Source: Methanohalobium evestigatum Z-7303
Lineage (GTDB): Archaea; Halobacteriota; Methanosarcinia; Methanosarcinales; Methanosarcinaceae
DNA length: 64,000 nt
Direction: 5' to 3'
Assembly: GCF_000196655.1 (NCBI RefSeq)
Contig: NC_014253.1
Location: 310,001-374,000, forward strand
The position numbers were made by a program, and so were the translations under genes. The notes under the pieces were generated by a model. It was not told the origin of the DNA. It ran no database searches and saw only the letters and a program-made list of their open reading frames with translations. Below, in pieces: positions 2,354 through 61,040 of the stretch; position 1 is the stretch's first letter, and the number at the start of each line of letters is the position of its first letter.

Positions 2354-3331
2354 ATGATCAATATGAGCCTAATAGAAGAGATCAAAAACAGGAGTTCAAC
2401 GGTGGACAGGGCGATATAGGAGTATCTCCCTGTCCAGAGCCCAGAAGAGCTTTACAGAGCTTCAAGGTATTTACCTGATGCTGGTGGAAAACGTTTGAGA
2501 CCAGTCAGTACAATTCTTGCAGCGGAATCTGTGGGTTGTTCTGATATTAAATCCATTTTGCCTGCTGCAGTGTCGGTGGAACTGGTTCATAATTTCACAT
2601 TGATTCATGATGATATCATGGATAAAGATGATGTACGCAGAGGTATGCCATCGGTCCATGTGAAATGGAATGAAGCAGGTGCTATCCTTGCGGGTGATAC
2701 ACTTTATTCTAAAGCCTTCGATATATTGTCAGGTGTGGACAATGACCCTGCTCAGATTGTGAAGTGTGTCAATCTTTTATCCAGAACATGTACACAGATA
2801 TGTGAAGGTCAATGGATGGATATTAATTTTGAAGAATCTGATCAGGTATCAGAAGAAGAATATCTTGAAATGATTGAGAAAAAGACCTCCGTTCTTTACG
2901 CTACATCGATTAAAATAGGAGCATTACTTGGTGGAGCTTCTGATGAAGTAGCAGATGCATTGTATGATTTTGGGCGCATGATAGGTGTCAGTTTCCAGAT
3001 ATACGATGATGTACTTGATTTAATAGCACCTGAAGAAACACTTGGTAAAGTAAGAGGAAGTGACTTGAGAGAAGGTAAAATGACCCTTATAGCAATCCAT
3101 GCTTTCAATCAGGGTGTAGAGTTGGATATATTTGGAAAAGGTAATGTCACCCGGGATGAAATTGATAATTCTGTACAGGCACTTGAAAATGCAGGATCTA
3201 TTCAGTATGCTAAAGACCTGGCAATGTCATACCTTGAAAAGGGTAAATCAAAACTTGATGTTCTTGAAGACACCAGAGCCAAAAAATTACTTCTTGATAT
3301 TGCTGATTATATGGTTGAAAGGCCATATTAA
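2354..3331 (+). CDS. idsA: Geranylgeranyl/farnesyl diphosphate synthase with in-frame UAG (probable pyrrolysine)
   Basis: Trans-prenyltransferase making the isoprenoid chains of archaeal ether lipids. Read from ATG 2354, the frame meets one UAG at 2417-2419 (codon 22, in the context RAI-UAG-EYLPVQ) and then runs open to TAA, giving 325 residues, normal for the family. The substrate-binding GGKRLRP segment lies just after the UAG. The first Asp-rich motif DDIMD is near residues 86-90 and the second, DDVLD, near 218-222. The only start available downstream of the UAG (TTG 2495) would cut into GGKRLRP and leave a protein unlikely to work. Relatives usually carry Lys or another polar residue where the UAG sits. 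I therefore annotate one gene with UAG decoded as pyrrolysine. Recent mutation or sequencing error is the alternative. Confidence 0.88.
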
Positions 3332-46254: not shown

Positions 46255-47608
46255 ACCACGATGTCTTTAGCATCGTGGTATGATAAATAGTCAAAAAAAG
46301 ATAAGTATTTTGCTAAATGATTGTATGATGAATGTATTTAACCCAGAAGAACCATCTCCGTACTGATAAACAGACGTATGAGACCTTGAAGAGGTTGACC
46401 AAACTGTCCAAGAACCTGTACAATTTTACATTGTATACGATTAGACAGTACTTCTTCAACTACGGGAAATATCTCAATAAGAATACCGCTTATCATACGG
46501 TCAAAGAGAACGAAAATTACAGATTAATGCCATCTCAGGTAGCCCAGAATACTGTGGAAACTGTAGATGGCAGTATGAAATCGTTCTTCAAACTTCTGGA
46601 TAAGAAAAGAAAAGGAGAATATGAAAAACCAGTTTCACTTCCAAAGTATCTGGATAAAGACGGAAACTTCATATGTACATTCAAGAAAGATCAACTGAAG
46701 GTTATCGACGATAAAATCAGACTATCATTGGGTCCTGAATATGGTAGAACATATGGTACCAGATTCTTGTATTTCAAGATACCTGACAATATAATAGGTC
46801 AATACATCAATCAGGTCAGGATCGTACCGAAATACAAGGGTAGATGGTTCGAGATAGAATACGTATATCATGAAGACGGGGAGATTGCTGAACTTGATTA
46901 TAATAGCCATCTATCGATAGATCTTGGAGTGGACAATTTTGCAACCTGCGTGACGACCAGTGGGACTGCATTCATATTAGACGGCAGGGGTATCAAATCT
47001 TATAACCGTTGGTGGAACAAGGAGAAGAGCAGGTTGCAGTCAGTCTACGACAAACAGAATGTAGATGATGGAATCAAGATGGATAGGTTCTCTAATAAAA
47101 GGTTCTGGAAGATAAACGATTTCATGAACCAGTGCGTTAATCATATCGTTAAACACTGTCTGGAAAATAGAATCGGCAACATCGTGATTGGAGAGATGAA
47201 AGAAATCAAACAGGAACAGAATATCGGCAAGAAAAATAACCAGAACTTCCAGACGATACCATTTGCCAGGTTCAAACAGAAATTAGTTTCAAAATGCGAG
47301 TACCACGGTATAAACTACCATGAAGTGAATGAAGCTTACACTAGCAAGGTTGATGCACTGGCTTTAGAACCTATCAGGAAACATAATAAATATCTCGGTA
47401 AGAGACATAAGAGAGGAATCTTCCAGTCATCTACAGGTAGACTGATTAACGCCGATATCAACGGTGCACTGAATATCTTAAGAAAGGTAATCGGTGATTC
47501 CCTTGCAGGGATAGTCGATAGTGGGGACGTGAACTCCCCGGGAAGAATAAGACTTTCAAGGTAGACTTCTTCCGAAGCCGCTGAGTCTTTAGCTCAGCGG
47601 TAGTTCAC
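46255..47608 (+). mobile_element. IS200/IS605-family element, tnpB-only, intact copy
   Basis: Left hairpin at 46255-46279 (arms ACCACGATG/CATCGTGGT, loop TCTTTAG) and right hairpin at 47577-47601 (arms CCGCTGAG/CTCAGCGG, loop TCTTTAG) flank an intact tnpB. The right end reads GGTAGTTCAC and ends at 47608; the related copy at 48647 ends with the same ten bases. The left boundary lies a little upstream of 46255 and is not placed. The 3' end of tnpB plus the right hairpin should form the TnpB guide RNA, with its guide copied from the bases after 47608. Confidence 0.75.
46332..47564 (+). CDS. tnpB: TnpB RNA-guided nuclease (IS200/IS605)
   Basis: 410 residues, intact. The N-terminus KNHLRTDKQTYETLKRLTKLSKNLYNF is typical, followed by MPSQVAQNTVETVD. 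RuvC residues: Asp in LSIDLGVDNFATC, Glu in IVIGEMKEIKQ, Asp in INADINGALNILR. It lacks the C-terminal CxxC zinc ribbon and carries TSKVDALALEPIRKHNKYLGKR instead, as in a known archaeal subgroup. The gene ends in UAG (47562-47564). If UAG is read as pyrrolysine the protein would extend 12 residues to a second UAG in the right hairpin. Confidence 0.9.
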   Translation: MYLTQKNHLRTDKQTYETLKRLTKLSKNLYNFTLYTIRQYFFNYGKYLNKNTAYHTVKENENYRLMPSQVAQNTVETVDGSMKSFFKLLDKKRKGEYEKPVSLPKYLDKDGNFICTFKKDQLKVIDDKIRLSLGPEYGRTYGTRFLYFKIPDNIIGQYINQVRIVPKYKGRWFEIEYVYHEDGEIAELDYNSHLSIDLGVDNFATCVTTSGTAFILDGRGIKSYNRWWNKEKSRLQSVYDKQNVDDGIKMDRFSNKRFWKINDFMNQCVNHIVKHCLENRIGNIVIGEMKEIKQEQNIGKKNNQNFQTIPFARFKQKLVSKCEYHGINYHEVNEAYTSKVDALALEPIRKHNKYLGKRHKRGIFQSSTGRLINADINGALNILRKVIGDSLAGIVDSGDVNSPGRIRLSR

Positions 47609-57848: not shown

Positions 57849-60800
57849 TTGCAAAATTACAGTGAACTATTAAGTACAACTGAATTATTAAATTCAGTTT
57901 TTGAATCCATAAAAGAAGGCGTTTGCCTTCATGAAATAATCTATGACTCTAATAATAATCCTGTGGATTACAGGATTATAGATACCAATCCTGCGTATGA
58001 ATCTATTATCGGTTTGAAAAGAGAAGACGTTTCTGGAAAGAAAGCCTCAGATATTTATGGTACAATTGAACCACCATACCTGCATCTCTATGCAAAAACA
58101 GCAGAAACGGGTGAAAAAGCATACTTTGAAACATTTTTCCCTCCACTTAACAAACATTTCAGTATTTCAGTAATATCCCCTGGAAGAGGAATGTTTATCA
58201 CAATATTTACCGACATCACGGGTCAGAAAAACATAGATAAAGAACTGGAAGCCATTTATGAAAACAGTCCTGTAGTGTCTATGGTAGTTGATTCTGATAG
58301 AAGAATTATTAAAATGAACAAAAGTGCCGAACAGTTCGCAGGAGCAATTTCTGATGAAGTTAAAGGAATGAAGGGTGGTGACGCTTTAAGGTGTCTACAT
58401 TCACTGGACGATCCTGATGGCTGCGGGTTTGGACCACACTGTAAATAGTGCACTGTGAGGAAAACTGTTCTTGACACGTTGGAAACTGGTAAAAGCCACT
58501 ACAATGTAGAAGCAAGTTTGCCGTTTATGATTGGTGGATGTATAAATCACCTTACCTTTCTCCTATCCACTTCACCCATCAAAGTTGAAAACGAGTCTAA
58601 AGTTTTAGTAAATTTCCTGGATATCAGCGAACGCAAAAAAGTTCAGGAAGATTTGCGAAAAGAAAAGAAGTTTTTTGAAAGAGTAGCAGAAACGAGTCCG
58701 ATTTCTATAACGCATTTAGACAAATCCGGAAACATTATATATGCTAACCATACCGCTGAGAAAGTTCTGGGTTTGTCTAAAAATGATATTAATAGAAGAA
58801 CTTATGATGATGTAAAATGGAAGATCACGGATTATGATGGAAATGATTTTCCACAGGATGAACTACCATTTGAACTGGTTAAAAAATATCATCAACCTGT
58901 ATACGATGTTCAGCATGCGATTGAATGGAAAAACGGCAAAAGGATATATTTGTCTATAAATGCTGCACCTATATTTGATAAATATGGTAATTTTGACGGC
59001 ATGATAGCAGCCATCGAAGATATAACAAAGCAGAAGAATACTGAATCCAACCTCGAACATGCTTTATATAATTCACATGAAAGAGAAAAAGAAATTAATG
59101 AACTTTTGAATGCAACCCGTACTATTCTGGAGGTAAATGATTTCAACACAGCAGCGAGGTACATCTTTGATTCATGTTCCAGACTTTTAGGAGCAAAAGC
59201 AGGATATGTATCCCTATTATCTGATACAGGAGATGAGAATGAAATTCTGTTTTTGGAGGATGGAGGAATGCCGTGTTCTGTTGATATTGATCTTCCAATT
59301 CCAGTAAGAGGTTTAAGTGCTGAAGTATCCCGTACTGGTGATGTGGTTTATGATAATGATTTCATGAACAGTAATAGGGTTAAATATATGCCGGAATGTC
59401 ATATGAATTTGCCTAATGTCCTTATATCTCCATTAACTGTGGATGGAAAAACATTAGGTTTTATGGGGTTTGCCTATAAAGAAGGGGGATTTACGGATAA
59501 TGATGCTCAACTTGCTAAAACGTTTGGTGAATACGCTGCAATAGCTTTGAAGAACAGCAAGGCGTTTCAAGCACTGGAGAAAAGCGAAGAGCGATATCGT
59601 TCTATATTTGAAACTGCTGCGAGTTTGATAACCTCTGTAGATGAAAACGGAACTATAGTTGATTGTAATAACCAGATAAAAAATATTCTCGGATATGAAA
59701 AGGAAGAGGTTATAGGTCAATCAATGACAAAAATAATTCATCCTGATTATGTTAACAAAAGTTTTGAAATACTCCATGAAATCCTCAACTACGGGTTTTC
59801 TTACAACAAAGAATACAAAATGGTCAGAAAAGACGGTGAACTTATTGATGTTCTTATAAATTCATCAGGTGTAGACAAAATCAACGGCAATTACAGCAGG
59901 ACGATTTGTATAATCAATGACATCACCAAAAGTAAAGAATTTGAACATGAGTTGAAGAAAAGTGAGGAAAAGTTCAGGAAAGTTACAGAACAGGCTGCTG
60001 ACGTTATCATAGCTTACGATTTTGACGGTAACATACTTTATGTAAACAACCTTGCCTGTGAAAAACTTGGATACACAAAAAATGAATTGTTGTCGATGAA
60101 TATTACAGATATCGACCCTGAAAATAATATCGAAACCTACAGAAAATACTGGTATGGTCTGTCACAGAATAATTCTGTACATATAGAAACATCCCGCAAA
60201 AGGAAAGATGGAAGCGTCTATCCTGCAGAATTAAGGATGACCCTTATAGATTTAAACGGAAAACCCGTTATTCTGGGGTTCTCCCGAGATATGACTGTCC
60301 AGAAAGAAGCCGAAGAGAACCTGATTAATGCCAAACTCGAAGCAGAGGCGGCAAGTCAGGCAAAAAGCGATATACTGGCAAATGTTAACCATGAGCTCAG
60401 AACACCTCTCACTTCCATAATAGGGTTTTCTGATGTCCTGCTTAAAGGCAAAGCAGGTGACTTAAATGAAAGCCAGAAAATGTATTTGTCCAGGGTGCAT
60501 AACAATGGTAAACACCTGCTTGACCTGATTACCGATATACTCGATTTATCAAAAATAGAATCCGGTAAATCCGGGCTTAATTATGAAAGAATATCCATCA
60601 TCGAACTTGTTAACGATTTAAAAGAGTATATACAACCTTTTGTTTCTAACAAAGTTCTGATACTGCATAGCCGTGTTGATTCTGGTCTAAACTACATATA
60701 CGCGGATTACATAAAAATCAAACAGATTTTATCCAATCTTTTGTATAATGCTGTAAAATTTACAGAGGAAGGGTCGATAACACTGGAAGTTAGCCAAAAC

Positions 60801-61040
60801 GAGGATGACGTTCAGTTCTCAGTCATCGATACCGGTATAGGAATACCAAAAGGTAGTCATGAAGCTATATTTGATTCATTCAAACAGCTGGACTCCGGAC
60901 CAGCCAGAAAATATCAGGGCACAGGACTTGGTCTTGCACTGGTTAACAAACTTGTGAATATGCATGGAGGACAAATATGGGTTGAAAGTGAAATTAAAAA
61001 GGGCAGCAGGTTTACTTTTACTATACCTGATAACAGATAA
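57849..61040 (+). CDS. Multi-PAS/GAF sensor histidine kinase with in-frame UAG (probable pyrrolysine)
   Basis: One frame of 1063 residues from TTG 57849 (AGGGGC upstream) to TAA, broken only by UAG at 58446-58448 (codon 200). Domain order: PAS (about 10-125), PAS (about 130-260) with the Cys motif CGFGPHCK-UAG-CTVR, PAS (about 273-400), GAF (about 420-570), PAS (about 580-700), PAS (about 705-825), HisKA with His848 (NVNHELRTP), HATPase (about 950-1060: NLLYNAVKF, DTGIGIP, GTGLGLAL). The UAG falls inside a conserved C-x-C-type motif in the middle of a PAS domain, where relatives have an ordinary residue. The next start is an internal ATG at 58563 or so, which would leave half a PAS domain. 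I therefore read UAG as sense, most likely pyrrolysine. Confidence 0.88.

What the first reader, a model, noticed from the sequence alone, without database searches (positions are those of the whole stretch)
57849..61040. UAG inside a conserved Cys motif of a PAS domain in a sensor kinase
The context CGFGPHCK-UAG-CTVR places the unusual residue between two Cys of a motif that I know from many PAS sensor proteins. Pyrrolysine here could be incidental, or could add a reactive imine at a likely ligand or redox site. The kinase would then sense only when UAG is decoded, which itself responds to methylamine growth in some organisms.
Basis: partly seen in the sequence, partly recalled or inferred. 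Interest (0 to 1): 0.8.

Follow-up and report, generated by a model that had tools for sequence, protein, structure and literature searches.

The report
Incidental pyrrolysine codon in sensor kinase
A signalling protein of a salt-loving methane-making archaeon has a "stop" codon in its middle, which this organism almost certainly reads as the rare amino acid pyrrolysine; related proteins carry many different residues at that spot, so it is most likely a harmless mutation and not a special sensing device.

Summary
An in-frame TAG (58446-58448) is codon 200 of a 1063-codon PAS/GAF sensor histidine kinase (57849-61040), inside HC-K-[TAG]-C. The genome fits Methanohalobium evestigatum and holds pylS, tRNA-Pyl(CUA), pylD and two TAG-containing mtmB genes.

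TAG is nearly absent as a terminator: 3 of 298 sampled coding segments, against 17% of intergenic stop triplets. The same window holds a control. The only idsA gene found (isoprenyl diphosphate synthase, needed for archaeal lipids) has TAG at codon 19, where a 97%-identical sister-species gene has CAG (Gln), and there is no usable start after it. TAG is therefore read as sense here, probably constitutively, and the kinase should be one full-length protein with Pyl200.

The functional reading is not supported. In 39 PAS homologues the four Cys (182, 192, 198, 201) are invariant, but position 200 is among the most variable columns (E, D, S, G, N, R, Y, K, L, H, V). No other genome of 185 in the order has TAG there within this motif. 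No stable mRNA structure follows. Homologous kinases carry TAG elsewhere.

Best explanation: neutral appearance of pyrrolysine at a tolerant site, a documented phenomenon. New member of a known kind. The invariant four-Cys PAS site is the more interesting feature.

The parts
57849..61040 (+). Sensor histidine kinase, 1063 aa with TAG read as sense; PAS domains, GAF, PAS domains, HisKA, HATPase_c; start TTG preceded by AGGGG
58446..58448 (+). In-frame TAG, codon 200, predicted pyrrolysine
58236..58634 (+). Second PAS domain (residues 130-262) with the four-Cys motif C-x9-C-x5-C-x2-C
58392..58394 (+). Cys182, invariant in 39 of 39 homologues
58422..58424 (+). Cys192, invariant in 39 of 39 homologues
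58440..58442 (+). Cys198, invariant in 39 of 39 homologues
58449..58451 (+). Cys201, invariant in 39 of 39 homologues, directly after the TAG
59139..59549 (+). GAF_2 domain
60360..60566 (+). HisKA phospho-acceptor domain (H-box NHELRTP present)
   Evidence: sequence
60705..61031 (+). HATPase_c kinase domain with intact N, G1, F and G2 boxes
   Evidence: sequence
2363..3331 (+). Control gene: idsA, short-chain isoprenyl diphosphate synthase, in-frame TAG at codon 19 (2417-2419); sister species has CAG

Best explanation
The kinase is one full-length sensor histidine kinase in which UAG 200 is decoded as pyrrolysine by the organism's standing Pyl machinery. The TAG arose by mutation at a tolerant, freely variable position between two invariant Cys of the second PAS domain. 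It persists because UAG is hardly a stop in this genome. The four invariant Cys probably form a metal, Fe-S or redox site (inferred) that senses a signal; Pyl is a passenger there. Shown: the codon, the machinery, avoidance of TAG as terminator, TAG in the only idsA found, variability of the column. Inferred: actual incorporation of Pyl, constancy of decoding, and neutrality.
For: Machinery: PylS at C1:298792-299508, tRNA-Pyl CTA beside it, PylD, two mtmB copies each with one TAG. TAG ends 3 of 298 coding segments by the automatic count (one of the three is this gene itself), against 17.2% of intergenic stop triplets, P about 1e-20. idsA, matched once in the genome, has TAG at codon 19; the 97%-identical sister gene has CAG; homology covers residues 1-322 in relatives, and no in-frame ATG, GTG or TTG lies between the TAG and the GGKRLRP motif. 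Column 200 has entropy 2.76 bits, the four Cys 0. The kinase domains stay intact after the TAG. The PAS domain departs from near-invariant columns at only 2 of 27, an ordinary number. No TAG at this site elsewhere in the order: two other pattern hits are non-homologous chance matches. No notable mRNA structure after the TAG, z = 0.46. Precedents: PMC4153887 (low TAG stop use goes with stable in-frame ambers, including a lipid-synthesis enzyme); PMC3639795 (drift, and a histidine kinase cluster with UAG).
Against: No proteomics or expression data. No close orthologue of this gene was found in the sister species, so the ancestral codon at 200 is unknown. A fresh loss-of-function mutation would look the same at this one gene. 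The idea of constant decoding rests on the inferred essentiality of idsA.
Confidence: 0.82

Rival explanations
1. The TAG is a recent nonsense mutation that makes a pseudogene or a truncated 199-aa PAS protein.
For: The organism has several paralogues that could cover the function; one sister-species paralogue carries an in-frame TAA in the same domain. The TTG start is weak.
Against: 863 downstream codons have no further stop or frameshift and keep all kinase motifs. TAG is nearly unused as terminator and is read in idsA. Conserved columns are kept as in other homologues.
Confidence: 0.08
2. Pyl200 has a chemical role: its imine sits at the four-Cys site and reacts with a ligand such as an amine or redox species.
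For: The residue lies inside the C-x-x-C pair of an invariant four-Cys motif.
Against: Homologues with the same four Cys have E, D, S, G, N, R, Y, K, L, H or V at this place; no other genome in the order has TAG there; in a homologue from another genus the TAG is at a different variable site.
Confidence: 0.04
3. Conditional decoding: on methylamines full kinase is made, otherwise only the N-terminal part, so the TAG works as a regulatory switch.
For: Methanol methyltransferase MtaB is present, so the organism may live without methylamines. Such carbon-source dependence is reported for Acetohalobium (cited in PMC8211752).
Against: TAG in the only idsA would make every other growth condition impossible if decoding stopped; TAG avoidance as terminator fits constant decoding, as argued for other archaea in PMC4153887.
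Confidence: 0.04
4. Two separate proteins: an N-terminal PAS protein and a kinase started internally.
For: An SD-like GGAGG precedes ATG at codon 474.
Against: TAG cuts the PAS domain in its middle; no start with an SD-like sequence lies near behind it, and codon 474 is inside the GAF domain.
Confidence: 0.02

Closest known systems
Neutral pyrrolysine in Methanosarcinaceae proteins (tRNA-His guanylyltransferase, Heinemann et al. 2009, as cited in PMC4153887)
   Same: In-frame TAG at a non-conserved site in a non-methyltransferase protein of a Pyl-using methanogen; homologues have ordinary residues.
   Different: Another protein; there the product was studied in the laboratory (my recollection), here only sequence.
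Predicted Pyl-containing proteins of 'Ca. Methanomethylophilus alvus' (PMC4153887)
   Same: Low TAG stop frequency (1.6% there) with in-frame ambers in varied genes, one of them for archaeal lipid synthesis.
   Different: Different order of methanogens and different genes.
Histidine kinase cluster 16 of Have et al. 2013 (PMC3639795)
   Same: Sensory transduction histidine kinase with in-frame UAG in Methanosarcinaceae.
   Different: Listed for M. acetivorans, M. mahii and M. barkeri; the present gene is not named in the text I read, and I did not see the supplementary list.
MtmB, MtbB, MttB methylamine methyltransferases
   Same: UAG decoded as Pyl by the same machinery in the same genome.
   Different: There Pyl is conserved and catalytic (established knowledge); here the column is freely variable.

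Membership tests
Pyrrolysine-containing protein | In-frame TAG with homology on both sides | tested here: met
Pyrrolysine-containing protein | Genome encodes tRNA-Pyl, PylS and Pyl synthesis | tested here: met
   (PylB and PylC not searched; PMC9499178 reports pylBCD for M. evestigatum)
Pyrrolysine-containing protein | TAG is avoided as terminator | tested here: met
Pyrrolysine-containing protein | Pyl residue shown by mass | not testable with these tools
   needs protein
Protein with functional Pyl (as MtmB, MtbB, MttB) | Pyl position conserved as TAG or restricted in homologues | tested here: not met
Programmed recoding site with a PYLIS-like structure | Stable mRNA structure after the UAG | tested here: not met
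   z = 0.46
Sensor histidine kinase | HisKA with H-box and HATPase_c | tested here: met
   motifs visible
PAS domain binding a cofactor through Cys | Bound heme, Fe-S cluster or metal | not testable with these tools
   four invariant Cys; no solved relative by sequence; the single-sequence model is too poor to use

The most novel reading that the evidence does not exclude
Pyl200 sits beside a four-Cys cofactor site and its electrophilic imine tunes the sensor, for instance by reacting with amines or by lying near a cluster, in this one lineage only.
Probability: 0.04. Interest if true: 0.75.

Novelty: new member of a known kind. Interest (0 to 1): 0.27.

Why it matters
It adds two clear cases (this kinase and idsA) showing that in this methanogen UAG behaves as an ordinary, rare sense codon. 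Genes of this kind are easily mis-annotated as pseudogenes or truncated proteins. The idsA case makes a sharp test: if TAG decoding were conditional, the cell could not make its membrane lipids. The invariant four-Cys PAS site is an uncharacterised sensor feature.

Tried and rejected
Structure prediction of the PAS domain alone: mean pLDDT 40.6, not used. Sequence search of solved structures: nothing relevant. Search of genome contigs with the domain: one Methanohalobium metagenome relative and one spurious hit. Pattern search for the motif with TAG in 185 genomes: two further hits are in frames full of stops and are not homologous. Several 'internal' TAGs it listed lie upstream of the likely start and were rejected. 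Literature on a pervasive Pyl code in archaea: I recall recent work, but did not find it in the library.

Full report
Observation. The frame 57849-61040 (+) reads as one 1063-residue protein with one TAG, codon 200, at 58446-58448. Pfam gives PAS domains on both sides, GAF_2, HisKA and HATPase_c. The H-box and the N, G1, F and G2 motifs can be read in the translation. Homologues and paralogues align across the codon without a gap.

Organism. The window lies in a 2,242,317-base contig with a second contig of 163,915 bases. From memory these sizes fit Methanohalobium evestigatum Z-7303; a Methanohalobium MAG is the relative found by name. PMC9499178 says that this species has pylTS and pylBCD in two clusters, which fits what I find: PylS and tRNA-Pyl at about 0.30 Mb and PylD at 0.89 Mb. 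Two mtmB copies have one TAG each and a third has none. A methanol methyltransferase MtaB is present.

Is TAG a stop here? In 384 kb (the window and sixteen 20-kb stretches) 298 coding segments end with TAA 204 times and TGA 91 times; three were scored TAG. One of the three is this kinase, one is an isopentenyl-phosphate-kinase-like gene with TAG three codons before the next stop, and one is a TnpB-like transposase (the two names are my reading of the sequences). By chance 17.2% would be expected from intergenic triplets (P about 1e-20). PMC4153887 and PMC3941956 describe low TAG stop use as a sign of adaptation to the Pyl system and of constant Pyl decoding in archaea.

A control inside the window. 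The gene at 2363-3331 is idsA-like (IdsA_Meth E 6e-108 and geranylfarnesyl diphosphate synthase E 1e-113, both below the curated equivalog cut-offs). Only one match was found in this genome at the threshold used. Its codon 19 is TAG; the sister species, 97% identical, has CAG; other relatives have E, G, R or Q there. The protein aligns from residue 1 in relatives, and no ATG, GTG or TTG follows in frame before the GGKRLRP motif. Since archaeal lipids need this enzyme (established knowledge), TAG has to be read, and presumably in all growth conditions. This is the strongest argument that the kinase TAG is read too, and against a switch.

Is Pyl200 special? In 39 distinct homologous domains the four Cys (182, 192, 198, 201) never vary. 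Position 200 has E 17, D 5, S 3, G 3, N 2, R 2 and single Y, K, L, H, V among those listed; its entropy of 2.76 bits is among the highest dozen of 133 columns. In three paralogues of the same genome the residue is D, E or N. A search of 185 genomes of the order for the motif with TAG in this place gave only this gene plus two chance matches. A homologue in another genus has its TAG at a different variable position, aligned with residue 150. The RNA after the TAG folds no better than shuffled sequence. So the residue looks incidental.

Is it a pseudogene? The domain departs from near-invariant columns at 2 of 27, fewer than many intact homologues, and the downstream 863 codons are clean. A very recent null mutation cannot be excluded for this gene alone, since no close orthologue was seen in the sister genome (one search shows no hit above about 66% identity there). 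Two separate proteins are unlikely: the TAG is in mid-domain and no start with a Shine-Dalgarno-like sequence lies near behind it.

Comparison with known cases. Neutral appearance of Pyl is described for tRNA-His guanylyltransferase (Heinemann 2009, cited in PMC4153887) and discussed as drift in PMC3639795, which also lists a histidine kinase cluster with UAG. The present gene is a further member of that kind. It works like any sensor kinase; whether the four-Cys PAS domain binds heme, Fe-S or metal is open. I could not get a usable structure.

Limits. No protein data; the stop-codon count uses a simple codon-usage classifier on one sixth of the genome; the species name is inferred.

Noticed in passing
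window 2363-3331: idsA-like isoprenyl diphosphate synthase, apparently single-copy, with in-frame TAG at codon 19 where the sister species has CAG; strong natural control for TAG being sense in this organism.
   Followed up: yes
L080, L081, L082, L083, L084, L085 (four species of one related genus): Sensor kinases with a TAG at the same site of the HATPase_c domain (ENGC[VI]-TAG-[VLI]) in two paralogue groups; a TAG conserved across species is a better candidate for a functional Pyl than the present one.
   Followed up: partly
L077 (G008:C1:135500-139500): Homologous kinase in another genus with a TAG in the same PAS domain at a different, variable position (context MMLLDK-TAG-RRIRK).
   Followed up: partly
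window 46502-47600 and L104 18090-19377: TnpB-like transposase genes end in two in-frame TAG codons 13 codons apart (RLSR*TS.EA.ESLAQR*); if TAG is always sense these proteins are extended, in L104 in frame into the next gene.
   Followed up: no
window 58392-58451: PAS domain motif of four invariant Cys (C182, C192, C198, C201) in 39 of 39 homologues of methanogens and relatives; likely an uncharacterised cofactor or redox site.
   Followed up: partly
L036 (G001:C74): Sister-species paralogue of this kinase carries an in-frame TAA in the same PAS domain, at a position that is Glu in nearly all others.
   Followed up: no
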